From Rhodoferax sp. (GTDB lineage Bacteria; Pseudomonadota; Gammaproteobacteria; Burkholderiales; Burkholderiaceae_C), in contig JARLJI010000116.1 in assembly GCA_031291295.1 (NCBI GenBank), forward strand, positions 248,001-312,000: a stretch of 64,000 nt of DNA, given 5' to 3'. Position numbers and translations under genes: made by a program. Shown here piece by piece: positions 2,399 through 16,238 of the stretch. Numbering within the stretch: position 1 is the stretch's first letter; each line of letters begins with the position of its first letter. The notes under the pieces are model-generated. The model did not search any database. It was given only the letters and a program-made list of their open reading frames with translations, and was not told where the DNA came from.

Positions 2399-3424
2399 CT
2401 ATGCGGGCGAAGCCACGCTGCGCTCCAGGAGGTCGAGCGCGACGTCGACGATCATGTCTTCCTGCCCGCCGACCATCCGGCGCTTACCGAGTTCAACAAG
2501 GATGTCAACTGTCTTCAAATCGTACTTCTTTGCCGCAACCTCGGCGTGGCGAAGGAAACTCGAATAGACGCCCGCGTATCCGAGGGCGAGTGTCTCCCGG
2601 TCGACGCGGACAGGTCGGTCCTGCAACGGTCGCACGATGTCATCTGCGGCATCCATCAGTCTGTAGAGATCGCAGCCATGATCCCAACCCATCCGCGCAG
2701 CCGCCGCCACAAAAACCTCGAGCGGCGCGTTGCCGGCGCCGGCGCCCATGCCCGCCAGGCTCGCGTCGACACGGTCGCAACCCTCCTCCACTGCGACGAT
2801 GCTGTTCGCGACCCCAAGACTCAGGTTGTGGTGAGCGTGCATGCCGGTTTGCGTCTCGGGCTTGAGAACGTCCTTGAAGGCACGAAAGCGGTCCCGGACT
2901 TCGTTCATGCTGAGCGCTCCACCGGAATCCACCACATAGCAGCACGTGGCGCCGTAGCTCTCCATCAGCTTGGCCTGCTGCGCCAGCCCTTGAGGCGTTT
3001 GCATGTGGCTCATCATCAGGAAGCCGACGGCCTCCATGCCGAGCTTGCGCGCGTACTCGATGTGCTGCCTGGAGACGTCGGCTTCGGTGCAGTGCGTGGC
3101 GACCCGCACAATTCGCGCGCCGGCCGTGTACGCATCCTTCAGGTCGTGAACCGTGCCGATGCCCGGCAGCAGCAGGGTCGCGATCTTGGCGTGCCTGACT
3201 TCGCTTGCCACGGCCTCGATCCACTCCACGTCGGTGTGAGCGCCGAAACCATAGTTGAAGCTCCCGCCTTGCAAGCCGTCGCCGTGGGCGACTTCGATCG
3301 AGTCGACCTTGGCATCGTCCAGTGCGCGTGCGATCTGCCGCGCCTGAGCGACGCTGTACTGATGCCGAATGGCGTGGCTGCCGTCGCGCAGCGTGACATC
3401 GGAGATGTAGATTTTCTTCTTCAT
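2399..3424 (-). CDS. dmpG: 4-hydroxy-2-oxovalerate aldolase
   Basis: This 341-residue class II aldolase splits 4-hydroxy-2-oxovalerate (or a homologue) into pyruvate and an aldehyde, the last step of meta-cleavage pathways. It opens with [17 protein letters not shown] (Arg13, Asp14, catalytic His near 21) and carries the metal-binding HAHHN at 196-200, at the spacing expected of a DmpG-type TIM barrel plus C-terminal domain. The start at 3424 is chosen for the GAGGAG site just before ATG and the [15 protein letters not shown] family start. It lies 10 bp after acetaldehyde dehydrogenase, its known channelling partner, and is the last gene of the operon. Confidence 0.95.
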
Positions 3425-3434
3425 GCGGATCTCC

Positions 3435-4388
3435 TCAGGCGCCCACCGGGGCGCGCAGCATGCGTTCGGCCATGCGCTCGGCGGTGGCCAGTGCCGCACT
3501 CGTCATGATGTCCAGGTTGCCGGCATAGGCCGGCAGATAGTGCGCGGCGCCTTCGACCTCGAGGAAGACCGAGGTCTTCAGACCGCTCATGCGTGGGCCG
3601 ACACCTGGGATGTTGAGCGGGCGGTCTGCTTCGATGCGGTCGAATTGCACCTTCTGCTTCAACCGGTATCCCGGCACATATCGCCGCACCGCAACCACCA
3701 TCCGCTCGATCGAGGCGGCGATCGCTTCAGGGTCGGCGAACTCACTGAGCGTGTAGACGGTGTCCCGCATGATCGGCGGCGGTTCGGCCGGGTTCATCAC
3801 GATGATGGCCTTGCCTTTGGTGGCCCCGCCGACGGTCTCGATCGCCTTCGACGTGGTCTCGGTGAACTCATCGATGTTTGCACGCGTGCCGGGTCCGGCG
3901 CTCTTGCTCGCGATGCTCGCCACGATCTCGCCGTAGTGCACCTTGGTAACGCGGGCGACGGCGGCGACCATCGGGATCGTCGCCTGGCCGCCGCAGGTCA
4001 CCATGTTGACGTTCAATGCGCCGAGGTGGTCCTCGCCGTTGACCACCGGAACGCAATAGGGTCCTATGGCCGCCGGCGTCAAGTCGACCAGGCGAATCTG
4101 CGGTCTCAGTCGGCGCAGGAATGCGTCGTTGGCGACGTGTGCCGCTGCGGACGTGGCATCGAAGACGATGTCGATTTCGTCAAAAACGGGAAGTCGGGCG
4201 AGTCCCTCTACGCCCTCGTGAGTCACCGCGACGTTCATGCGCGCGGCTCTGGCCAACCCGTCCGAGCCGGCATCGATGCCGACCATGGCGCCCATCGCGA
4301 TGTGTTTGCCGTGGCGCAGGATCTTGATCATCAGGTCGGTGCCGATGTTGCCGCTGCCGATAATGGCTGCCTTGAGTTGTCGGGTCAT
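3435..4388 (-). CDS. dmpF: Acetaldehyde dehydrogenase (acylating)
   Basis: A 317-residue CoA-acylating aldehyde dehydrogenase of the DmpF/MhpF family, turning acetaldehyde, NAD+ and CoA into acetyl-CoA. The N-terminal Rossmann motif is [12 protein letters not shown] (residues 9-20) and the catalytic Cys is C132 in [12 protein letters not shown], the same position as in DmpF. It would form a complex with the aldolase encoded 10 bp downstream, so that the toxic aldehyde passes directly between them. The hydratase gene ends 9 bp upstream. Length and motifs are fully normal. Confidence 0.95.
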
Positions 4389-4397
4389 GACCGGTCC

Positions 4398-5198
4398 TCA
4401 GGCCATCCGACACGACACGGTGCCGAGCGCGCCGATCTGCGCATGCACAAGATCACCGGAGCTCACGGGAACCATCGGCCCCAGCGCGCCCGACAGGATC
4501 ACTTCTCCGGCCCGCAGCCCGTGCCCTCGTTCCGCCATCGTTCGAGCGAGCCAGTAGGCCGCTCGCAACGGATGCCCGAGGCACGCCGCACCCGTCCCGA
4601 CCGAGACGGTCTGGCCGTTCTTGCTCATCTGCATGCCGATGTCGCCGAGCGACAGATTGCCAAGTGCGACCGGTTGGTCACCGAGTACGTACAGGCCGCT
4701 GGACGCGTTGTCGGCCACCGTATCCACGAGCGTGATCTTCCAGTCCGTGATCACGCTGTCGACAATCTCGATCGCCGGCAGCGCGTACGCGATGCACGAG
4801 AGAAACTCGGACCAACTCGGTGTCTTGCCCGTGACATCCCGCCCGACAATGAAGGCGACCTCGGCCTCGACTTTGGGCTGGATCAGGCGCGACGTGTCTG
4901 CGCTGTCACCGCTCAGGACCTCCATGTCGTCGAAGAGGATGCCGAAGTCGGGCTGCTCAACCCCGAGCTGGGCCTGCACGGCTTTAGACGTCAGCCCCAC
5001 CTTCTTGCCGGTGATACGGTGGCCGGCATCGAGATGCGCGCGGGTATTGACCTCGGCGACAGCGTAGGCAGCTTCCAGGCCGACGATGGCGTGGGTCTCG
5101 GAGATCCGTGGAATCGTCCGACGGTTGGCGCGCGCGTCGCGGAGTGCGAACGCCGCTTCCTGTGTCGCGTTGCCTGCCGGCGCAGTGGCTTGACTCAT
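4398..5198 (-). CDS. dmpE: 2-hydroxypenta-2,4-dienoate (2-oxopent-4-enoate) hydratase
   Basis: A 266-residue member of the MhpD/DmpE/DmpH family. It has GKKVGLTSKAVQAQLGV, QPDFGILFDDM, and QPKVEAEVAFIVGRD, which holds the metal-binding Glu residues, followed by AIEIVDSVITDW. The family includes both hydratases and 4-oxalocrotonate decarboxylases. Because it sits beside dmpF and dmpG with no tautomerase or semialdehyde dehydrogenase in the operon, the hydratase role (adding water to 2-hydroxypentadienoate to give 4-hydroxy-2-oxovalerate) is preferred. Its start overlaps the ferredoxin stop by 4 bp (ATGA), a sign of translational coupling. Confidence 0.88.
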   Translation of the reverse strand: MSQATAPAGNATQEAAFALRDARANRRTIPRISETHAIVGLEAAYAVAEVNTRAHLDAGHRITGKKVGLTSKAVQAQLGVEQPDFGILFDDMEVLSGDSADTSRLIQPKVEAEVAFIVGRDVTGKTPSWSEFLSCIAYALPAIEIVDSVITDWKITLVDTVADNASSGLYVLGDQPVALGNLSLGDIGMQMSKNGQTVSVGTGAACLGHPLRAAYWLARTMAERGHGLRAGEVILSGALGPMVPVSSGDLVHAQIGALGTVSCRMA

Positions 5199-6581: not shown

Positions 6582-7603
6582 GCCGGCTCCTGTCCGAGCC
6601 ATCGAAGGGCGTTGCCCGAGCCGAGCAGTGCCAGGGTGTCGCCGGAGAGTCCGAGGGATTCGAGTCGCGCCACCGGCTCTTCATCCATGATGGCGAATGG
6701 ATAGTCGGACCCGATGAGGATCTGGGTGCTGCCGAAGACATCCATCAACCGGTGGATCGTTGGAGCGTCGTAAACCAGGTCGTCGAAGAACAGACGGCGC
6801 GCCATGCGATCGGGTTCGTCTTCCAACGACGAACGCACGGGTGACAGCGTGTTCCAGGCATGCTGCAGCCGCGGCAACAGCGCGCTCAGCGTGCCGCCGC
6901 CATGACTGAATGCTATGCGGAGCCCCGGGAGGCGCGCGAGCGTTCCGCCGGTGATCAGTGACGCGGCAGCCAGACCCGTCTCGCCAGGGAAGGCGAGCAC
7001 CTGCTCGAGTGCGGCCGGCCCGATGAGCCGGTCCATGCCTGCGGGGCGCAGGGGGTGCACGAACACCGAGGCCCCCCAACCCGCAGCGGCCTCGAAGAAA
7101 GCCAGGAAGTCCGGATGCCCGATGACCTTGCCATTGACGTTGCCGGCAATCTCGACGCCGGCCAGTCCCAGTTCATGGACGAGCCTGTCAAGTTCGCGAA
7201 TCGCAAGCGGGATGTCCTGGAGCGGGACCGCGCCGAGCCCAAAGAAGCTTCTGGGCGCCTCCACGACCATCTTGGCGATCATGTCATTGAGGTATCGGCA
7301 CATCGCGGCGCCGTCGTCCGGATCCATCCAGTACGACAGGAGCTCGGGCATCGGCGAAAGAACTTGCCGACCGATTCGCCGTGTCGCCATGTCGGCCAAC
7401 CGAACCGAGCAGTCCCAGCACTGATGCGACACGGTGCGGTAAACCGAGCCCGACACCATGACGTGCCGATGGCAGGCATGTGCCGGCGCCATCGACGGCC
7501 AGCCAGCGTCCATCCGTCGTCCCAGGTACGGAGGAAATGACTCCGGAACGACGTGCGTGTGAACGTCGATGGCGTCCAAGGGGCGGGCAGGCATGTCGGT
7601 CAA
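6578..7603 (-). CDS. ACMSD-like amidohydrolase, probable decarboxylase of a carboxylated ring-cleavage product
   Basis: This 341-residue amidohydrolase-2 protein has metal ligands H15 and H17 (DVHTH), H183 (FVHPLRP) and D300 (IGSDYPF), with catalytic-type H234 (FSHGGG) and R245. As I recall them, the residues of Pseudomonas ACMSD are H9, H11, H177, H228, R239 and D294. Every one is matched here with a constant +6 offset. ACMSD removes CO2 from 2-amino-3-carboxymuconate semialdehyde without a redox step. Between the extradiol dioxygenase and the C-C hydrolase, the fitting role is decarboxylation of a 3-carboxy meta-cleavage product. It overlaps the genes on both sides by 4 bp. Confidence 0.85.
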   Translation of the reverse strand: MTDMPARPLDAIDVHTHVVPESFPPYLGRRMDAGWPSMAPAHACHRHVMVSGSVYRTVSHQCWDCSVRLADMATRRIGRQVLSPMPELLSYWMDPDDGAAMCRYLNDMIAKMVVEAPRSFFGLGAVPLQDIPLAIRELDRLVHELGLAGVEIAGNVNGKVIGHPDFLAFFEAAAGWGASVFVHPLRPAGMDRLIGPAALEQVLAFPGETGLAAASLITGGTLARLPGLRIAFSHGGGTLSALLPRLQHAWNTLSPVRSSLEDEPDRMARRLFFDDLVYDAPTIHRLMDVFGSTQILIGSDYPFAIMDEEPVARLESLGLSGDTLALLGSGNALRWLGQEPA

Positions 7604-8481
7604 CCCTTCGACGCAGGCGGAAGCTTGCCGGTCGAGAAGAAGCTCGTGGCGACCTCATTGAACTCGGCCGGCGCCTCGTACTGCGGCCAGTGAGCAGCGT
7701 CACCTTGCATGACATATAACACGCTGCCGGGGACCTTCGCTGCAGCAGCGCGAGCCGCTTCGAGATCGTGGATCGGATTGTCCAGTGTCCACAGGAAGAG
7801 CGTCTCGCAGCGCAGAGATTCGAGGGGGATCAGGAAGTCGTCATGACGCCGGATCACAGCGTTGATCTTCGGTGCGACCCGGCGCGTATCGGGCGCAAGG
7901 TAAATCTTCAACCGCAGGTCAACAATTTCCTCGGCGAGCAATTGATGATTGTTCGGATGCATCAGCCACTTCATCCGGGCGAGCACGGTGTCGCGGTTCG
8001 GCACAGCGTCGACATTGGCCTTGTTCAGCGCCATGAAGTTCGCCATGTCTTGCTTGCCCTTCGCCGAGACCACGGGAATTCCGCCTGCCGTGTTGAGCAT
8101 CAGTCGTTTGACACGGGCGGGGTACTTCGCTGCGAAGGTCCCCGACACCCAGCCGCCCAGCGACTCGCCCGACAGGTGTGCCGCGTCGATCTTGAGCGCG
8201 TCCATCAGTTCCCGCAGCTGTTCAGCGAAGATGACCGGGTTGTAATCGTCCAGCTTCTTGTCGGACAGGCCGTGACCGACGTAGTCGAAGGCGATCACGT
8301 GGAACTGCTGGGACAGTGCAATGAGGTTCTTGGCATAGGCCTCCAGGTGCCCATTCAGGCCGTGCTGGAACAGGATCGTCTCTTTGTTGCCGCGGCCCGC
8401 TTCGGCAATTCGGATGCGGCCATAGGTCGGCGTATCGACGTAACGGATTTCGGTGCCCAGAAAGTCAAGCCAGAGGCTCAT
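7600..8481 (-). CDS. Meta-cleavage product C-C hydrolase (alpha/beta fold)
   Basis: A 293-residue alpha/beta hydrolase of the BphD/DmpD/CmtE type. It shows HGLNGH (oxyanion loop, 40-45), S107 in GESLGG, a candidate acid at D234 or D239 (LWTLDNPIHD) and H264 (GDAAHWPQYE). It would cut the vinylogous diketone from ring cleavage into 2-hydroxypenta-2,4-dienoate and a carboxylic acid. Its presence means that the ring substrate carries a side chain that ends as an acid, for example isobutyrate if the substrate is p-cumate. The start at 8481 follows AAGGAG; longer in-frame starts lack such a site. Unlike most BphD homologues the acid strand reads WTLDN instead of WGxxD. Confidence 0.85.
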   Translation of the reverse strand: MSLWLDFLGTEIRYVDTPTYGRIRIAEAGRGNKETILFQHGLNGHLEAYAKNLIALSQQFHVIAFDYVGHGLSDKKLDDYNPVIFAEQLRELMDALKIDAAHLSGESLGGWVSGTFAAKYPARVKRLMLNTAGGIPVVSAKGKQDMANFMALNKANVDAVPNRDTVLARMKWLMHPNNHQLLAEEIVDLRLKIYLAPDTRRVAPKINAVIRRHDDFLIPLESLRCETLFLWTLDNPIHDLEAARAAAAKVPGSVLYVMQGDAAHWPQYEAPAEFNEVATSFFSTGKLPPASKG

Positions 8482-8620
8482 GGAGTTACTCCTTCGGTGA
8501 TGGAACGGTGGGTGAACGGTTTGTTCGGGACGAACGCATCCCTCGACGTGCCGCATAGGCATTCGCGTGGTGCAAACGGCGGGAGGGGCCAGCGCGGTCG
8601 ACCGCGCCGGCGAGGCGAGG

Positions 8621-9313
8621 TCAGTCTGTTGTCGCGCGGTGCGGCAACCCCTCCAGATACTGCGCGACCATGCGTCGCCAGAGCTTGTAAAGGCGGTTGA
8701 AGCGGGGCGCGTCGTGCTGCCAGAGCCCGCGGATCGCCAGACCGCGCACGATACTGATGGTCAGCCACAGGAGGTCTTCCGCGACCTCCCGCGGCACGCC
8801 CGCCTCGATGAGGGCGTTGAGCCAGTTGGCCTCGACGGGCAAACGCGAAGCTGCCGAGATGGCGCCGAGAATATTTCCTTCGCCGCCCTGTGCTCGTCCC
8901 TGTATCGCCAGATCCAAGGCAATAAAGAACAGTTCGCTGAAGAAGAACTCCTGACTGTCCGACAACAGGGCCTTGAACGCCTCGTCCACCGAGTGAACGC
9001 GCCGCGCACGTTTGCGCCCCTGTTCGCTGGCTCGTGCGAACACGTGTTCCACGACCGCAACGACCAGATCGTCCTTCGAGGGAAAGTGGTGCGTCTGCGC
9101 GCCACGTGACACGCCCGCGATCTCCGCCACGTCGGCTGTGCGAAATCCCGCGTAACCCTTCTGCGCCAGCAGGTCGACGGCCGCATCCAGGATGCGTCGC
9201 CGCGTGTCCTCGGTCCTCTCGGCTTGCGTGCGCCTGGCTCGTTTCAAAGGGGGTGCCTCGTTCGACTCGATCGAAGTAGTGTTGCAGGCGGGTTTCGAGG
9301 TAGCCAAAGACAT
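8621..9313 (-). CDS. TetR-family repressor, CymR-like
   Basis: A 230-residue TetR regulator. After a ~24-residue leader come RRTQAER, ILDAAVDLLAQKGYAGFRTA and the helix-turn-helix GVSRGAQTHHFPSKDDL (about 58-82). The C-terminal ligand domain contains EDLLWLTISIVRGLAIRGLW. As I remember CymR of Pseudomonas putida F1, the p-cumate-responsive repressor, it shares the RRTQAER, KGYAGFR, GVSRGAQ-HHFP-K and AED-LWL-VRGLA-R-LWQ blocks. It lies inside the operon, same strand, 71 bp after the SDR gene and 139 bp before the hydrolase. The likely target is the palindrome at 13866-13897. Start choice is uncertain as no strong ribosome site is visible. Confidence 0.85.
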   Translation of the reverse strand: MSLATSKPACNTTSIESNEAPPLKRARRTQAERTEDTRRRILDAAVDLLAQKGYAGFRTADVAEIAGVSRGAQTHHFPSKDDLVVAVVEHVFARASEQGRKRARRVHSVDEAFKALLSDSQEFFFSELFFIALDLAIQGRAQGGEGNILGAISAASRLPVEANWLNALIEAGVPREVAEDLLWLTISIVRGLAIRGLWQHDAPRFNRLYKLWRRMVAQYLEGLPHRATTD

Positions 9314-10183: not shown

Positions 10184-10672
10184 TCACAGAAGGATGCTGA
10201 CGCGCCCGTGCGGACGAAGGGCATCCATATCGAGCATCGAGCGTTTCTCCCGAATTCGCAGCGCGCCGCCGACGATTGCCAGGCGATAGCGGTAGCTGCC
10301 GACGTAGACATCGGCGGCTGTGTTCTTGAAGCGGTGCACCGCGAATGCGGCAGATACCTGCAATTCGTTCTCATCCCGCTCATCGATCAGCACGTTGGTC
10401 ACCATGTGCCGCGTGCGCGAACGTGGCCACTCGACGTGGGCACCTTTCTTCTTCAGGCGCACGACGCGCTCGCGCAGGCGGACGCGATCGTCTGCGACGT
10501 AAAACAATGTGTTCTCGGGACCGACGTCCGGCGCAGTTCCGATCGTGGGTACGTGGTAGACCGCGTCGTCGGTGAACAAGGCAAGCCATTCATCGAGTTG
10601 CCAGCGGTCGAGCATGGCCGCCTCGCGGTAAAGGAATTCTTCGACATCGTTTCTGGTGATGGTTGAGCTCAT
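10184..10672 (-). CDS. Ring-hydroxylating dioxygenase beta subunit
   Basis: A 162-residue SnoaL/NTF2-fold small subunit. It shows EEFLYREAAMLDRWQLDEWLALFTDDAVY near the N-terminus, RTRHMVTNV in the middle and a strand ending RIREKRSMLD, all usual in this family. It builds the alpha3beta3 hexamer with the alpha subunit encoded at 12540-13829 and has no cofactor. It is unusual that the alpha and beta genes are not adjacent: an extradiol dioxygenase and an FAH-family gene stand between them. Its start overlaps the FAH stop by 4 bp. Confidence 0.92.
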   Translation of the reverse strand: MSSTITRNDVEEFLYREAAMLDRWQLDEWLALFTDDAVYHVPTIGTAPDVGPENTLFYVADDRVRLRERVVRLKKKGAHVEWPRSRTRHMVTNVLIDERDENELQVSAAFAVHRFKNTAADVYVGSYRYRLAIVGGALRIREKRSMLDMDALRPHGRVSILL

Positions 10673-11595
10673 GGTGCTGTCCCTTTTCGAATGTTTTCGG
10701 ACGATGTGCTAGACGCCGAGGTGTTCTCCCCGTCGAGGACCGGGTTCACGAGCGGTTCAAAGCCGTCCACCCGAACGGTGCAGGTATCACCGTGCTTCAT
10801 CCAGAGCGGCGGGGTTCGCCCGATCCCGACCCCTGACGGTGTTCCGGTGACGATCACGTCGCCAGGGAGGAGCGTCATCGCGACCGACAACTCGCTGATC
10901 AGCGTCGCGATGTCGAAGATCATGTCGTTCGTCGAAGCCGACTGAACCGTTTCACCATTGAGTACAGTGCTCAACGTCAGGTCACGCGCACCGGGTGGCA
11001 GCTCGTCAGCGGTGATCAGCTCGGGTCCGAACGCGCCGGTTGCATCGAAGTTCTTGCCCATCGTCCACTGATGGCTCTTGAACTGGAAGTCGCGGACCGA
11101 GGCTTCGTTGAACAGTGCATATCCCCCGACGTAGTGCAGTGCCGTCTCCCGCGTGACGTTCTTGGCAGGGCGGCCGATGATGCAGGCCAACTCACCTTCG
11201 AAGTCGAATTGATCGGAACAGTGCGGCCGACGCAGTGCTTCGCGATGAGCGATCAACGTTCGCGCCTGACGAAGGAAGATCACCGGATACTTCGGCACCT
11301 CCTGAGGCGTCGGAGCCTCCTTGATGTGATTCGCATAGTTCAGGCCGACGCAGATGATCTTCTCGGGTCGCGCAAAAGGCACCAGTGGCCTGATCTCTGC
11401 GAAGTGATGAACCGCCTTCGTCGATGCATGACGTATCAGACTTTCGACCCAACTGAGGCCGTCTTGGCCAGCTGCCAGCAAGGTCGCCAGGTCGAGTTTC
11501 GATCCGCGGGCCGCGATACCAAGGTCAACAATCTCTTCGCCCTGGCGAACGCCCAGCGTGGGGCCTTTATCACTTGCAAATCGGATGAATTTCAT
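10669..11595 (-). CDS. Fumarylacetoacetate hydrolase family protein
   Basis: A 308-residue FAH-fold protein: an N-terminal cap (MKFIRFASDKG), then CVGLNYANHIKE, PVIFLR, the metal-binding DFEGELACIIGR, FNEASVRDFQ, and GDVIVTGTPSGVG. Members hydrolyse acylpyruvates or hydrate or decarboxylate 2-oxo acids with Mg2+. The classic aromatic route already has its hydrolase, decarboxylase and hydratase in this operon. This gene is therefore an extra step or a substitute, perhaps a tautomerase/hydratase on the ring-cleavage product. It starts 15 bp after the extradiol gene and overlaps the beta subunit gene by 4 bp, so it is clearly part of the transcript. Confidence 0.88.
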   Translation of the reverse strand: MKFIRFASDKGPTLGVRQGEEIVDLGIAARGSKLDLATLLAAGQDGLSWVESLIRHASTKAVHHFAEIRPLVPFARPEKIICVGLNYANHIKEAPTPQEVPKYPVIFLRQARTLIAHREALRRPHCSDQFDFEGELACIIGRPAKNVTRETALHYVGGYALFNEASVRDFQFKSHQWTMGKNFDATGAFGPELITADELPPGARDLTLSTVLNGETVQSASTNDMIFDIATLISELSVAMTLLPGDVIVTGTPSGVGIGRTPPLWMKHGDTCTVRVDGFEPLVNPVLDGENTSASSTSSENIRKGTAP

Positions 11596-11610: not shown

Positions 11611-12540
11611 TCAGGACGACGACTCAACAGCGCCAACCTTCCCGAATGCGGGGGCAGGAATTCCACCCCAGCTGTCGAGAATCTCTGGCCGCAGCGGTAG
11701 TTGGCGCGGGGCGCGGGAGGCTTCTTCGGGAAACTCTTCCATCCCGAAGCTGTACTCGGCGGTCAGTCGGTCCGGATCGAGGTAGTAAAGGAAGATCGAG
11801 TTGGAGATGTCGTGACGACCGGGCCCGTACACGATGGGTACGTCGTTGTTGCGCATCCGGTTGTTCGCGCGCCCAACGTCATCAACGTCGGTCACCATGA
11901 AGTTGATGTGATGCAGGGCATCCTTCTCTCCGCGACTGACGCCAAAGCTGTGATGGAACGGGTTCGGGAAGCAGCGAAGAAAAGCAACCTGTTCGCCGAA
12001 GTAGTCAGAGACGCGAAAGTTGAGCTTTTCGGTGAGGGTCCGCAGGAATTCGTCGCGGTTCGCACAGTGCAGCACGACATGGCCCAGTCTCTGAATCTTG
12101 GCCACAGTGGGCACGAACGATCCTGAGGCGCGGTCCATCTGCGCGTAGAACTCAAACGTGATGCTGTGCTCAGGTACGCGGAACCGGAATGTCCGCCCCT
12201 GCTTCAGTTGACGCCGCTCTTCTTCGGGGACTTCCTGAGGGGACCAACCCTGCCGTTCCACGTACGACCGTGCCCGATCGAGGTCTGCGGGGGACTCGAG
12301 CTCGAACGCCATGCGCTTGATCCCGGGAGTTTCCGAGCGGTAGAGCGCCAAGTTGTGATGATCGCCACTGCACCGCAGGAACGCCATGTCGCTTCCGACT
12401 TGTTCCTCCAGTTGCAGGCCGACCAGATCCCGATAGAAATGGACCGACCGGTTCAGATCGGTGACATTGAGCGCGACGTATCCGGGCTTGCGGTAGCGAA
12501 AGGGTGCCATGTTCTCTTTCAATGCAGTGTTCTTTTCCAT
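11611..12540 (-). CDS. Type I extradiol ring-cleavage dioxygenase (two-domain VOC)
   Basis: A 309-residue two-domain vicinal-oxygen-chelate dioxygenase. The N-terminal domain is inactive in metal binding. The C-terminal domain gives iron ligands H154 (RLGHVVLH), H210 or H211 (ALHHINF) and E262 (TAEYS), with a candidate second-sphere His at 196-197 (PFHHSFG) and the signature YYLDPDRLTAEY. It opens a catechol ring next to the hydroxyls using Fe(II) and O2. In context it would act on a carboxylated diol such as 2,3-dihydroxy-p-cumate. ATG 12540 overlaps the alpha-subunit stop by one base (TGATG), so the genes are translationally coupled. Confidence 0.9.
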   Translation of the reverse strand: MEKNTALKENMAPFRYRKPGYVALNVTDLNRSVHFYRDLVGLQLEEQVGSDMAFLRCSGDHHNLALYRSETPGIKRMAFELESPADLDRARSYVERQGWSPQEVPEEERRQLKQGRTFRFRVPEHSITFEFYAQMDRASGSFVPTVAKIQRLGHVVLHCANRDEFLRTLTEKLNFRVSDYFGEQVAFLRCFPNPFHHSFGVSRGEKDALHHINFMVTDVDDVGRANNRMRNNDVPIVYGPGRHDISNSIFLYYLDPDRLTAEYSFGMEEFPEEASRAPRQLPLRPEILDSWGGIPAPAFGKVGAVESSS

Positions 12541-13829
12541 CAGGCCACCTTCAGCGGGACAACGCGTGGCTTGTCGCCCAGCAGTGAGTTCCAGCGTTCC
12601 CAAAACACGCGGATCTGATATTCGTCCACCGTCGCCGGCTCCGTTTTCTTCATCCCTCGCGAGATGTCGTTCCAACCGGCTTCGCGCGCGTTCGTATATC
12701 CGCGCTGGCATGACTCCAACATCTCCACGTCGTCAGGCGTTGCGAAGCCACCCGGCCCCAGGAACTCGAGGAAACTGTGCAATCGGTTCTGTCGCAGCCA
12801 GCCTTCTTCTTCGGACGGCCCGACAGCCCAGGCCGTCACTTCCATGTAATCTGGCGTCTTCGGGAAAAACGTCCGGAACGTGAGGGCCATGACATCGACG
12901 ATCACGAGATTCGGGAAGATCAGCAGGTTGCGGCTGTTCTTCGCGATCCGGGTCGCACGCTCTTCTCCGTGCTTCGCGACCAGTTTTCCGTAGACGGCGT
13001 CGACCTCGCCCCTGCGCTCCTCGCCCCAGGCCGGTACCCAGTTCGCCACGGGCCGTCCCCATGGGGCGCTGTACTCGACGACGGCGTGGCCGTTGCCGAG
13101 GTTCTTCGCGAAGCCGACGACGTTGCTCTGCGAGAGCACGCCATTCATGTTCTTCAAGTAGTCGAAGTAGGTCGCATGCGTCGATAAGGCGTGGTAACCG
13201 TCGAAGCTGTTCTCGACCAACAGCTTCCAATTGGCGCGGATTGCGTACTCCTGTCGACCGCTTACGATCTCGAGGCCCGCCTCCGACTGATCGGCGATTA
13301 GGTCCAAGTACTCGGTGGCGCCTGCCAGATAGTCGACAAGCGGAATCGCCGCCACGTCGAAGCAAACGAACCACAAGCCGCGGTATTGCTCGAGGCGAGG
13401 AACCGGGACGAGGTCCGTGCAGCCGTTGGCATTGAAGCCCTCGGCATACGATTCGATTCCCGGCAGGTCGCGGAGCTTGCCGTCTGCACCGAAAACCCAC
13501 CCGTGATAGCTGCAAGTGAAGTTCTTCGCTGTGCCTGAAGACTCGCGGCATACGGTGGAGCCCCGATGGGGACATGCATTCAGGAACGCGTGAACTTCGC
13601 CGGCAGCGTCTCGATTGAAGATCAGGTTTCGACCACCAACGGGTCGCGTAACAAAGGAGCCCTTTTTGGGTAGCTCCGAAGCGTGGCCGATGTAAAGCCA
13701 ACAGCGATCGAAGATCTGTGAACGCTCCGCCTCAAATACGCTGAGGTCGGTAAAGGATTTGCGAGCCACGCGGAACACGCCTGCGTTCTGATCTACGTGC
13801 AGGAGATTGGCAAAGGGGGCGTCATTCAT
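12540..13829 (-). CDS. Ring-hydroxylating dioxygenase alpha subunit (Rieske, p-cumate-dioxygenase-like)
   Basis: A 429-residue large subunit. The Rieske cluster ligands are C86 and H88 (CPHRG) and C106 and H109 (CSYHGWVFG). Mononuclear iron ligands are H213 and H218 in NSFDGYHALSTH, with an Asp near residue 375. Length and spacing match benzoate/p-cumate-type oxygenases. It would add O2 to the ring to give a cis-dihydrodiol using electrons from the ferredoxin pair further down the operon. The first gene of the transcript, it starts at 13829 after ACGGAGAAAAC. Its promoter lies in the palindrome 37 bp upstream. The exact aromatic substrate is inferred, not seen. Confidence 0.93.
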   Translation of the reverse strand: MNDAPFANLLHVDQNAGVFRVARKSFTDLSVFEAERSQIFDRCWLYIGHASELPKKGSFVTRPVGGRNLIFNRDAAGEVHAFLNACPHRGSTVCRESSGTAKNFTCSYHGWVFGADGKLRDLPGIESYAEGFNANGCTDLVPVPRLEQYRGLWFVCFDVAAIPLVDYLAGATEYLDLIADQSEAGLEIVSGRQEYAIRANWKLLVENSFDGYHALSTHATYFDYLKNMNGVLSQSNVVGFAKNLGNGHAVVEYSAPWGRPVANWVPAWGEERRGEVDAVYGKLVAKHGEERATRIAKNSRNLLIFPNLVIVDVMALTFRTFFPKTPDYMEVTAWAVGPSEEEGWLRQNRLHSFLEFLGPGGFATPDDVEMLESCQRGYTNAREAGWNDISRGMKKTEPATVDEYQIRVFWERWNSLLGDKPRVVPLKVA

Positions 13830-13865: not shown

Positions 13866-13897
13866 TTAACATACCGACTGATTTGTTTGTATGTTAA
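13866..13897. promoter_or_regulatory. Operon promoter with CymR-type operator palindrome
   Basis: Arms TTAACATAC (13866-13874) and GTATGTTAA (13889-13897) are perfect inverted repeats. Inside them sit AC and GT at equal distance around a 6-base centre. The known cumate operator, as I recall it, has ACAAAC-N2-AC-N6-GT-N2-GTTTGT; here the same layout reads ACATAC-N2-AC-N6-GT-N2-GTATGT. On the minus strand the arms also form a promoter: TTAACA (13892-13897), 18-bp spacer, TATGTT (13868-13873), about 40 bp before the alpha-subunit ATG. Repressor binding would block RNA polymerase directly. Confidence 0.75.
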
Positions 13898-14138
13898 CCC
13901 GAAGATCGAGCCCTGAAACTAGGGAATACCCCTGGGGATTCTCTGCACAAGTCATCCCAGCCAGGCGTACGAACGTTAAGGCAATGCTTGTATGGGCGCC
14001 TCCCGGATTACAAGTAACTCGTGTGCGTGAAGAATCAGGAGGCAGGGCTGCAGTCTTATATTCGGCCTGTCGTGCAGGCGGTCAAGCCTGCTGGCCCTGA
14101 TGGCATTCGCTGACGAGGTTCCCATCTGAACATCGAGC
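13898..14138. other. Intergenic stretch with no recognised gene
   Basis: About 240 bases between the operon promoter and the transposase remnant. Base composition is lower in GC than the operon. A 69-codon frame (13891-14100, plus) is present but has no family resemblance and no convincing ribosome site. I see no repeat, terminator or RNA structure of note. Confidence 0.4.
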
Positions 14139-14694
14139 TTGACGCTCATTTGCCCTATCGGAGTGTCCTCATCCCGGTCCGACCTGTCTGGCCCATCACA
14201 CGCGTGGCCACTTGCTCTCCTTCAAAACGGTTGTTTCAAGATCCCTTTCAATGCGCGCCCTGCCACGCTTCGGACTGAGCTGGTGGCGTTGATTGAGCCG
14301 CATGCGCCCGCAGGCAAGACCGGACGCCCGCCCTTTGCCGTTGCCACCATGCTGCGCATCCACTTCCTGCAGCAGTGGTTCGGTCTGTCCGACCCGGCCA
14401 TGGAAGAAGCCCTGCACGACGTGCCGCTTTACTGTGAATTTGCGCAGCTGGACGCAGGCATCAGCCGCTTGCCCGACGAGTCCACCATTCTGAGATTCCG
14501 CCACCTGCTGGAGGAGAACAACCTCAGCGTGCAGCTGCTGGCTACCATCAACGCCACCCTGGCCGCTAAAGGACTGCTGCTCAAGACGGGCACCGTGGTG
14601 GACGCTACCTTGATTGCCGCGCCCAGTTCCACCAAGAACAGCAGCGGCGAGCGTGACCCCGAGATGCACCAGACCAAGAAGGAAAATCAATGGG
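14139..14694 (+). pseudogene. IS5-family transposase, N-terminal part, interrupted
   Basis: From about 14235 the frame gives RTELVALIEPHAPAGKTGRPPFA, then TMLRIHFLQQWFGLSDPAMEEALHDVPLYCEF, LPDESTILRFRHLLEENNL, and DATLIAAPSSTKNSSGERDPEMHQTKKENQW. This is the N-terminal half of an IS5-type DDE transposase including the first catalytic Asp region. The match stops exactly after TGG (14691-14693), where a group II intron 5' end begins. The second half of the transposase, with the other acidic residues, is absent. The upstream start region also diverges, so the limits are approximate. Confidence 0.85.
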
Positions 14695-15185
14695 GTGTGT
14701 CACGAACACAGGCGGCAGACCTGTGGTGCTGTACCGAAGATGGGAGTAGGCCTCCCGAAGCCGGCTTGCAGGAGCAGGCTGCAAACCGCCCGGTGCTGCT
14801 GCGTTCAAAAGGCGCGGTGGTGAGCGACTGTGGAAAAGTCACCCGCTGAGGGTGGCAGGTACGTATTGAGAAGATGAGCGAAAGCAAACCGTCCGACGAC
14901 GCATCGTTATGCCCAAAGGCGCTGTCGAAACTGAGGTAGACCATTGGCTTCAGGACGAATCGGGGCGCCACCTGGTTACGGACCCGATGGCAGCCGGTGA
15001 ATAGGCGGCATGATCTCAATACAGGCTTTGGTACGGAACGTGAGAACCTTGTTCCAGATGTGACGGAAAATGACAAGTGGCAGACACCATGGGGAAGCAT
15101 ACCGATGCTGGAACGAGGGGCGGAGTCGCCCGCAGTAGCGTGGAAGCCTCTGTAATGGAGGTGGAGCGAAGGGGCGGCGTTATCC
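14695..15185 (+). mobile_element. Group II intron 5' RNA-domain fragment
   Basis: The sequence begins GTGTGTC, matching the GUGYG 5' consensus of group II introns. It contains blocks familiar from bacterial group II introns ahead of the reverse transcriptase gene: CTTTGGTACGGAACGTGAGA near 15025 and CCTCTGTAATGGAGGTGGAG near 15148, followed by GCGAAGGGGCGGCGTTATCC. No maturase frame and no domain V or VI follow. The fragment ends where an IS3 OrfA remnant begins, so the intron is a truncated relic. It sits in the plus orientation inside the IS5 transposase, as if it had homed into that element. Identification is from memory of such introns. Confidence 0.7.
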
Positions 15186-15361
15186 TGCCGATGAGTGTTG
15201 CCAACCTCCGGGGATGAGCAGCATGGCCTTGGGCATACCGAGCACGTTGGCAACAACCGACATCGCCTGCCCAGCCTTGACCTGCTGAACCGCCTCCAGT
15301 TTGTATTCCAGCGTGTACTACGCACGCGCTTGCTTTTCTGATATTTTTGACTCCTTGGTCA
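15186..15361 (-). pseudogene. IS3-family OrfA remnant
   Basis: On the minus strand ATG 15361 opens MTKESKISEKQAR, then a TAG stop, then YTLEYKLEAVQQVKAGQAMSVVANVLGMPKA in the same frame. This is the helix-turn-helix start of IS3-type OrfA proteins (YxxEFKLEAVxLVxxGxxxxxVAxxLG). The nonsense codon and the loss of the rest, including OrfB with the DDE core, make it dead. It joins the intron fragment near 15186. The ~70 bases between it and the IclR gene hold the likely IS end and no gene. Confidence 0.7.
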
Positions 15362-15431: not shown

Positions 15432-16238
15432 TCAATGGTGGCCATCTCCCTGGATGGCCTTGCTGATCTTGGCTGCGGTGTCGACGGTTAGCTCGATCAG
15501 GGGAGCAATTTCTCGCTCCTTGAGGCTGGAGAGGCGGCGACCGATAGTAAAGCTGCCAGCGACGCCCTTGGTGTGCATGATGGGCGCCGAGATCCCGTAG
15601 GTGTCGGGGTTGATTTCACCCGGTGCGGCAAAGTATCCCGCCTGACGGATTAGCTTCATCTTGCGGTTGAAATCCTGCCAGTCCTGTCCCAGGCCGGCTC
15701 GGACGATGTCGGCGCCATGATCGAGCATCAGCTCCTTCAATTGACGTTGGGGCAGATGTGCCAGGATGATGCGCGATGGCCCGCCACGAAACAGAGGAAA
15801 CGGTCGCCCACGGTCGTAGCCCGAAGGAATGTCCTTGTCGACTCGCACGTCATGGAGGCAGAGCACGTGGTCACCATAGAAGCTGCATAGCAGTTGTATG
15901 CCTGCTGCCTGCTTGCGGATCGCATTCATCAGCGGTGGACCGGCCTGCAGCAGCGGGTCATTGAGCCGAATCTGCCGGTCCAGTTGGATGATCCGCGGAC
16001 CAAGCACGTAGGCCCCCGCATTGAGTGACGCCAGGAAGCCAGCGTCCGTCAGGGTCTTGGCATAGCGGTAAGCGGTCGTGCGCGCCAAGCCGAGCTTTTT
16101 CGCGATGCCTTCGACAGTCCAGCTTGGCGCTGTCTCCGTGAAGAGATCCATCACCCCGAGCACACGCTCGGAACTGCTCTGCGTCGTCGCTGGCTGGATT
16201 TCGTCGGCCTCTGGCCGGTTTGTGGTCTTGGTCGCCAT
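15432..16238 (-). CDS. IclR-family transcriptional regulator
   Basis: A 268-residue IclR protein. The winged helix covers about 22-85 (SSERVLGVMDLFTE, SWTVEGIAKKLGLARTTAYRYAKTLTDAGFL) and the GAF-like effector domain runs from about 95 to 260 (ISAPIMHTKGVAGSFTIG, SLKEREIAPLIEL). IclR proteins commonly control neighbouring catabolic genes and bind aromatic or oxo-acid effectors. It is divergent from the gene at 16684. The 445-bp gap between them contains an inverted repeat (16360-16387) that may be its site. Start is the ATG at 16238; a good ribosome site is not obvious. Confidence 0.9.
   Translation of the reverse strand: MATKTTNRPEADEIQPATTQSSSERVLGVMDLFTETAPSWTVEGIAKKLGLARTTAYRYAKTLTDAGFLASLNAGAYVLGPRIIQLDRQIRLNDPLLQAGPPLMNAIRKQAAGIQLLCSFYGDHVLCLHDVRVDKDIPSGYDRGRPFPLFRGGPSRIILAHLPQRQLKELMLDHGADIVRAGLGQDWQDFNRKMKLIRQAGYFAAPGEINPDTYGISAPIMHTKGVAGSFTIGRRLSSLKEREIAPLIELTVDTAAKISKAIQGDGHH

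What the first reader, a model, noticed from the sequence alone, without database searches (positions are those of the whole stretch)
13866..13897. Palindrome with cumate-operator geometry over the operon promoter
A 32-bp palindrome with 9-bp perfect arms also has inner AC/GT pairs around a 6-base centre. The same half-site layout (six-base arm, two free bases, AC, six-base centre) occurs in the cumate operator of P. putida as I recall it, with ACATAC in place of ACAAAC. The arms coincide with the -35 and -10. It gives a direct target for the TetR protein encoded in the operon.
Basis: partly seen in the sequence, partly recalled or inferred. Interest (0 to 1): 0.8.

Follow-up and report, generated by a model that had tools for sequence, protein, structure and literature searches.

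The report
Cumate-type repressor site over operon promoter
A 32-base mirror-image DNA sequence just upstream of an aromatic-acid-degrading gene set matches the published cumate operators in layout and is the likely binding site of the gene set's own CymR-related repressor, which would keep the genes off until an aromatic acid, predicted to be p-cumate or something like it, appears.

Summary
The palindrome is real: TTAACATAC-N14-GTATGTTAA at 13866-13897. Inside it, 13869-13894 has the published CymR layout of two 10-base half-sites around six free bases. A matrix built only from published cumate operators ranks it first in the 64 kb window; its core occurs once in the genome.

All six close relatives of the operon carry the site 29-46 bp before the alpha-subunit ATG, and each genome gave one TetR ortholog. 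With distant CymR-like loci, 16 of 21 have it. Of 29 alpha relatives with no CymR-like TetR in the fetched DNA, none does. The TetR is 43% identical to CymR over 182 residues without gaps.

The operon is cmt-like, with the regulator just before the CmtE-like hydrolase as in strain LB400. An ACMSD-like decarboxylase and a BenC-like reductase seem to stand in for CmtD and CmtAa/CmtAd.

Corrections: the outer TTA/TAA bases and the ACATAC spelling are not conserved; ACAAAC-N6-GTCGGTWTGT is the usual form. Promoter hexamers are predictions; binding and inducer are inferred. It is a new member of a known kind.

The parts
13866..13897 (.). 32-bp palindrome with 9-bp perfect arms, as reported
13869..13894 (-). 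CymR-type operator, 10-N6-10: ACATACAAAC-AAATCA-GTCGGTATGT (minus strand, operon sense)
   Evidence: best matrix hit in the window, 24.3 bits; next non-overlapping hit 16.1; 0 of 200 shuffles of the 200 bp upstream reach it
13869..13890 (-). core conserved in relatives: ACAAAC-N6-GTNNGTWTGT
   Evidence: alignment with six relatives; one match in the own genome at up to 1 mismatch
13868..13897 (-). predicted sigma-70-type promoter, TTAACA (13897-13892), 18 nt, TATGTT (13873-13868), overlapped by the operator
   Evidence: consensus scan only, 9 of 12 bases
12540..13829 (-). Rieske dioxygenase alpha subunit, CmtAb-like; first gene of the operon
   Evidence: PF00355 and PF00848; many of the 120 listed homologs (60-87% identity for the named ones) bear the automatic name p-cumate 2,3-dioxygenase alpha subunit
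11611..12711 (-). extradiol ring-cleavage dioxygenase, CmtC-like (start uncertain, ORF as listed)
10669..11595 (-). fumarylacetoacetate hydrolase family protein
   Evidence: PF01557
10184..10672 (-). ring-hydroxylating dioxygenase beta subunit, CmtAc-like
   Evidence: PF00866
9385..10383 (-). short-chain dehydrogenase, CmtB-like (ORF as listed; true start probably downstream)
8621..9313 (-). TetR-family regulator related to CymR, proposed repressor that binds the operator (start chosen by me)
7600..8562 (-). alpha/beta hydrolase, CmtE-like
   Evidence: PF00561
6578..7603 (-). amidohydrolase closest in the PDB to 2-amino-3-carboxymuconate-6-semialdehyde decarboxylase; proposed stand-in for CmtD
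   Evidence: 201.6 bits
5565..6602 (-). ferredoxin-domain reductase, BenC-like; proposed stand-in for CmtAa/CmtAd
   Evidence: 166 bits to BenC, below its cut-off of 430
4398..5198 (-). 2-oxopent-4-enoate hydratase family, CmtF-like
   Evidence: 256-278 bits to the two best models, below their cut-offs
3435..4388 (-). acetaldehyde dehydrogenase (acetylating), CmtH-like
   Evidence: TIGR03215, 451 bits against cut-off 282
2399..3499 (-). 4-hydroxy-2-oxovalerate aldolase, CmtG-like
   Evidence: TIGR03217, 592 bits against cut-off 286

Best explanation
The palindrome contains a match to the published operators of CymR, the p-cumate repressor, and is likely the binding site through which the operon's own CymR-related TetR protein represses this cmt-like operon until an aromatic acid, predicted to be p-cumate or something like it, releases it. 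A TetR dimer would sit on 13869-13894, over the predicted -35 to -10 region, and block RNA polymerase (inferred). The regulator is the sixth gene of the operon it would control, so its own level would also be set by the switch (inferred). Shown here: the sequence, the match, the conservation with the regulator, and the gene order. Not shown: binding, transcription start, inducer.
For: Matrix from published CymR half-sites only: best hit in the 64 kb; 0 of 200 shuffles reach it. Six of six close relatives carry the site 29-46 bp before the alpha ATG, and each of the six genomes gave one TetR match, at 67-77% identity on the same contig. With CymR-like TetR: 11 of 12 loci scanned upstream had the site; without one in the fetched DNA: 0 of 29 (Fisher p = 4e-9, which treats related loci as independent). 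The TetR matches CymR at 43% over 182 aa without gaps, with GVSRGAQTHHFPSK against GVSRGAQSHHFPTK. The core occurs once in the genome. LB400 has cymR between cmtD and cmtE (PMC5224996, passages); the window has TetR just before the hydrolase.
Against: No binding or expression data. Five of 21 loci with a CymR-like TetR gave no site in a plausible place (L063, L065, L069, L090, L093). The 29 control loci are mostly Actinobacteria, Bacillales and Chloroflexi, so phylogeny and base composition are confounded with TetR absence; and absence was judged only in the fetched DNA, a test that L003 also failed although its genome has the TetR further off. L005's site is weak (14.4 bits) and is missed by the core pattern at one mismatch, which finds 5 of 6 relatives. 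In two relatives that pattern also has 2 and 3 one-mismatch matches elsewhere. The exact 9-bp arms are not conserved. The substrate is inferred from family resemblance; NCBIfam puts the alpha subunit nearest BenA, far below cut-off (275 against 781 bits).
Confidence: 0.88

Rival explanations
1. The palindrome is an operator, but for another regulator of the region, such as the IclR-family protein at 15432-16238, which would bind it to activate or repress the operon.
For: An IclR-family gene lies about 1.6 kb upstream of the operon; IclR proteins often control aromatic operons (general knowledge).
Against: No homolog of this IclR protein (tblastn, E 1e-5) in the 15 stretches searched, which cover 12 distinct related loci, 11 of which carry the site. 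The site tracks the TetR. A transposase ORF and a group II intron match lie between the IclR gene and the operon.
Confidence: 0.04
2. The site is a CymR-type operator, but the TetR acts as an activator or as a partial roadblock, and the main control lies elsewhere, for example at the conserved GGGTAWWCCC box about 37 bp upstream.
For: GGGTAWWCCC starts 37-38 bp upstream of the operator in 4 of 7 orthologous promoters, with degenerate forms in two more.
Against: The operator overlaps the predicted core promoter, the usual place for a repressor. CymR itself is a repressor (PMC1654148, passages). The box is not enriched in the genome over the reversed control pattern (17 against 14).
Confidence: 0.07
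3. The palindrome is a chance feature of an AT-rich promoter region.
For: 29 listings of 9-bp perfect arms with spacers up to 30 nt exist in the window, some nested.
Against: The matrix match and its conservation with the TetR are not explained this way.
Confidence: 0.01

Closest known systems
CymR operators of P. putida F1 (P1 and P2 CuO) and B. xenovorans LB400
   Same: Layout 10-N6-10 with AC-NN-AC facing GT-NN-GT, in front of a cmt-type operon. The right half-site GTCGGTATGT differs by one base from the LB400 cmtAa half-site GTCGGTTTGT given in PMC5224996.
   Different: The left half has ACAAAC at the inner position (ACATACAAAC), as P1 does, not ACAAACAGAC; flanking TTA/TAA extends the palindrome in the window but not in the six relatives.
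CymR repressor (p-cumate responsive TetR protein)
   Same: 43% identity over 182 residues without gaps; nearly identical recognition helix; gene inside the operon just before the hydrolase gene, as in LB400.
   Different: Far from the CymR group itself, whose LB400 member is 71% (table) or 78% (text) identical to F1 CymR in PMC5224996; inducer unknown.
p-cumate (cmt) operon
   Same: Dioxygenase alpha and beta, dihydrodiol dehydrogenase, extradiol dioxygenase, hydrolase, hydratase, acetaldehyde dehydrogenase and aldolase, in similar order.
   Different: A 341-aa ACMSD-like decarboxylase where LB400 has a 244-aa CmtD, a 345-aa BenC-like reductase where LB400 has CmtAa and CmtAd, and an extra FAH-family gene.

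Membership tests
CymR-type operator | AC-NN-AC-N6-GT-NN-GT core of the published 10-N6-10 site | tested here: met
   ACATACAAAC-AAATCA-GTCGGTATGT; best matrix hit in the window
CymR-type operator | exact half-site ACAAACAGAC on both sides | tested here: not met
   Half-sites are ACATACAAAC and ACATACCGAC; the published P1 site does not have the exact half-site either, so this is a feature of P2, not of every CymR site
CymR-type operator | bound by the cognate TetR protein, released by inducer | not testable with these tools
   needs binding and reporter assays
CymR subgroup of TetR regulators | TetR fold with N-terminal helix-turn-helix | tested here: met
CymR subgroup of TetR regulators | full-length similarity to CymR beyond the DNA-binding domain | tested here: met
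   182 residues ungapped at 43% against a CymR sequence recalled from memory that a database protein matches at 99% over 94% (P0122, unnamed there)
CymR subgroup of TetR regulators | responds to p-cumate | not testable with these tools
   needs a reporter or binding assay with p-cumate
cmt (p-cumate) operon | dioxygenase alpha/beta, dehydrogenase, extradiol dioxygenase, hydrolase, hydratase, aldolase, acetaldehyde dehydrogenase together | tested here: met
   at the level of protein families
cmt (p-cumate) operon | CmtD-type decarboxylase and CmtAa/CmtAd electron transfer | tested here: inconclusive
   an ACMSD-like protein and a BenC-like reductase sit in the operon; no CmtD, CmtAa or CmtAd sequence was compared

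The most novel reading that the evidence does not exclude
CymR-related regulators down to about 28% identity, governing quite different operons, share one operator code, and that code holds two overlapping dyads 2 bp apart, so a dimer can bind in either of two registers or two dimers can crowd one promoter: an undescribed TetR operator grammar that stayed fixed while the enzymes around it were swapped.
Probability: 0.15. Interest if true: 0.6.

Novelty: new member of a known kind. Interest (0 to 1): 0.42.

Why it matters
It turns an unannotated TetR gene and an uncharacterised aromatic operon into a testable pair: one regulator, one site, a short list of aromatic acids to try. The cumate switch is a widely used expression tool, and fifteen further loci with a related regulator and a candidate site are listed here that could give switches with other inducers. 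It also suggests that the repressor-operator module was kept while the decarboxylase and the electron-transfer parts of the pathway were exchanged.

Tried and rejected
Exact ACAAAC-N12-GTTTGT in the window: none (a wrong spacing, tried first). An automatic palindrome search upstream of relatives first suggested an ACAAAC-N10-GTTTGT site. Aligned to the published sites it is the same site read in a second register, centre shifted by 2 bp. Over 12 sites, complementarity is 95 of 168 in the 10-N6-10 register and 93 of 168 in the shifted one, next best 72, so I could not decide between them. In L002 the matrix prefers a reading moved by 4 bases (23.8 bits) over the one aligned with the other sites (18.5 bits).

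TetR relatives of the same order: 0 of the other 398 genomes at E <= 1e-40. Genomes of the family of L005: 6 of 399, L005's own included. In both calls at most 7 candidates per genome were scored, so these are lower bounds. The best PDB match to CymR is 47 bits. Structure comparison says TetR fold and no more.

The GGGTAWWCCC box: 17 matches against 14 for the reversed control in the own genome, so no regulon evidence.

Loci without a site: L063 (best 8.5), L065 (6.4), L069 (4.3, regulator cut by the contig end), L090 (11.2, coding), L093 (15.1, inside an annotated gene). One search was given 12 of the 15 CymR-like loci then in hand; L063, L068 and L069 were left out and are counted. Of 62 plasmid records with a CymR-like match I looked at 9; 38 of the 62 are one Pseudosulfitobacter species and 10 are Agrobacterium. 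The control was given 29 of 31 loci; L034 and L038 have only partial alpha matches. Distances run to the start of the alpha match; in L006 this lies 24 bp inside the gene, so its 53 becomes 29. One search counts one TAG inside the TetR match in two relatives; in L004's genome it is the gene's ordinary end, and the aligned TetR of L007 has no stop.

Full report
What is there. On the minus strand, 39 bp before the start codon of the first gene of an aromatic-degradation operon, lies the 26-mer ACATACAAAC-AAATCA-GTCGGTATGT (13869-13894). Three more bases on each side complete the 32-bp palindrome of the finding. Perfect 9-bp arms are not in themselves rare in this GC-rich window (29 listings at spacers 0-30, some nested), so I did not rely on palindromy.

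Match to known operators. The published CymR sites are P2-CuO AACAAACAGACAATCTGGTCTGTTTGTA and P1-CuO AAAGAAACAAACCAACCTGTCTGTATTATC (PMC1654148, passages seen), and in LB400 ACAAACAGAC-N6-GTCTGTTTGT and ATAAACAGAC-N6-GTCGGTTTGT (PMC5224996, passages seen). A matrix of the six half-sites from P2, P1 and the LB400 cmtAa site, laid out 10-N6-10, puts the window's best hit at 13869 (24.3 bits). Other hits of 14 bits or more are the same site read 4 bases off (13865, 19.1) and 20672 (16.1). In the own genome the core ACAAACN6GTNNGTWTGT occurs once and has no one-mismatch neighbour; the reversed control pattern gives one match on each strand at the same tolerance.

Conservation. The alpha subunit found 37 loci in GTDB genomes. 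The six closest (L002-L007, 80-88% identity; by their record titles Burkholderiales, Rhodoferax, Xenophilus and Ramlibacter) have the site 29-46 bp before the alpha ATG. In the alignment ACAAACA, a C, GT and a T are invariant in the site, while flanks differ. The strict core pattern at one mismatch finds the site in 5 of 6 of these genomes, missing L005; two of the genomes hold 2 and 3 further one-mismatch matches elsewhere. Each of the six genomes gave one TetR match, at 67-77% identity, on the same contig (for five, all candidates scored; for L005's, 7 of 69 scored). More distant CymR-like regulators were then added from plasmids and from a 399-genome family sample. Upstream of the first gene, 11 of 12 loci had the site, none of 200 shuffles reaching it in any of the 11, against 0 of 29 alpha relatives in whose fetched DNA no CymR-like TetR was found (best control score 8.6). 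Adding the three loci left out of that call and six plasmid loci at 28-36% identity, the tally is 16 of 21 loci with a hit of 14 bits or more in a plausible intergenic place, judged by eye against the annotation or ORFs. Whole control loci (31 loci, 458 kb) reach 14 bits in 5 and 20 bits in none. The control set is taxonomically different, and L003 too would have passed as lacking the TetR by its fetched DNA alone; both weaken the contrast.

The regulator. The TetR gene (8621-9313) encodes a protein 43% identical to CymR over 182 residues without a gap. In the recognition helix the window has GVSRGAQTHHFPSK and CymR GVSRGAQSHHFPTK. L002 and, but for one lysine-flanking difference outside this stretch, L003, L004 and L007 have the window's GVSRGAQTHHFPSK but GTTTGT or GTTTGA rather than GTATGT on the right side. 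The model is confident (mean pLDDT 90.3), with helix 70-76 in recognition position by analogy; the fold is TetR.

The operon. In order: alpha, extradiol dioxygenase, FAH-family protein, beta, short-chain dehydrogenase, TetR, alpha/beta hydrolase, ACMSD-like amidohydrolase, BenC-like reductase, hydratase, acetaldehyde dehydrogenase, aldolase. That they form one transcript is inferred from strand and spacing. Many of the 120 listed alpha homologs carry the automatic name p-cumate 2,3-dioxygenase alpha subunit. LB400 has the order cmtAa-Ab-Ac-C-B-Ad-D-cymR-E-F-H-G by the locus numbers of the paper's table; its text swaps G and H (PMC5224996, passages). The window keeps the regulator just before the hydrolase, and the hydratase, acetaldehyde dehydrogenase, aldolase end. 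An ACMSD-like decarboxylase would do the job of CmtD, removing the carboxyl group from a 3-carboxy ring-cleavage product (inferred). The substrate is therefore most likely a p-cumate-like benzoate, but this was not shown.

How it would work. Without inducer a TetR dimer sits on the operator, across the predicted TTAACA-18-TATGTT promoter, and blocks transcription of the operon, its own gene included; an aromatic acid binds the C-terminal domain and releases it. The placement and the match are shown; blocking, release and inducer are inferred from CymR. In the relatives the best promoter-like hexamers lie in varying registers, often but not always overlapping the site, so the exact promoter is uncertain.

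What stays open. The sites carry two overlapping dyads, centres 2 bp apart, almost equally strong over 12 sites (95 and 93 of 168 pairs; two of the 12 were turned to the other strand by me, which favours this picture). They come from the 4-base spacing of AC steps and may be no more than that. A GGGTAWWCCC box starts 37-38 bp upstream of the operator in 4 of 7 orthologous promoters, reason unknown.

Literature. Searches (open-licence PMC papers only; rows listed 5 of 5, 15 of 63, 15 of 84, 12 of 19, 15 of 21 and 12 of 27) listed no paper that by title or abstract start treats this operon or a shared operator code for CymR relatives. I read passages of PMC1654148, PMC5224996 and PMC4349456; the other papers I saw only as listings.

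Noticed in passing
13922-13931 (minus strand); L002, L004, L007 upstream of the alpha gene: A GGGTAWWCCC box 37-38 bp upstream of the operator in 4 of 7 orthologous promoters, degenerate in L003 and L005, not seen in L006; perhaps an activator site.
   Followed up: partly
14139-15218: A transposase ORF (DUF772, 14139-14849) overlapped by group II intron sequence: Rfam RF01999 at 14742-14860, and about 88% DNA match to stretches annotated ltrA on Pseudomonas and Stenotrophomonas plasmids at 14619-15218; a mobile remnant right upstream of the operon.
   Followed up: partly
L003/L070 and L006/L071: In these two relatives about 4.6-4.8 kb of extra DNA lies between the FAH gene and the beta-subunit gene; its genes were not identified.
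   Followed up: no
L064 (one of 38 Pseudosulfitobacter plasmid records with the TetR): A cmt-like operon with CymR-like TetR and a site at 4613-4638 sits on a conjugative 100-kb plasmid; 37 further records of the species hold the TetR but their operons were not looked at.
   Followed up: partly
L089 3669-3694 and 9501-9526: Two near-identical variant sites, TTACAAAC-CGNNCA-CTTGGTATGT (10.9 and 15.5 bits), each between divergent genes in Sphingopyxis, with a shared change in the right half-site.
   Followed up: no
L091 7993-8018 and 8683-8708: Two sites bracket the TetR gene in Salipiger, one before the TetR gene and one before the ABC transporter genes, in a neighbourhood without annotated ring-cleavage genes.
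   Followed up: no
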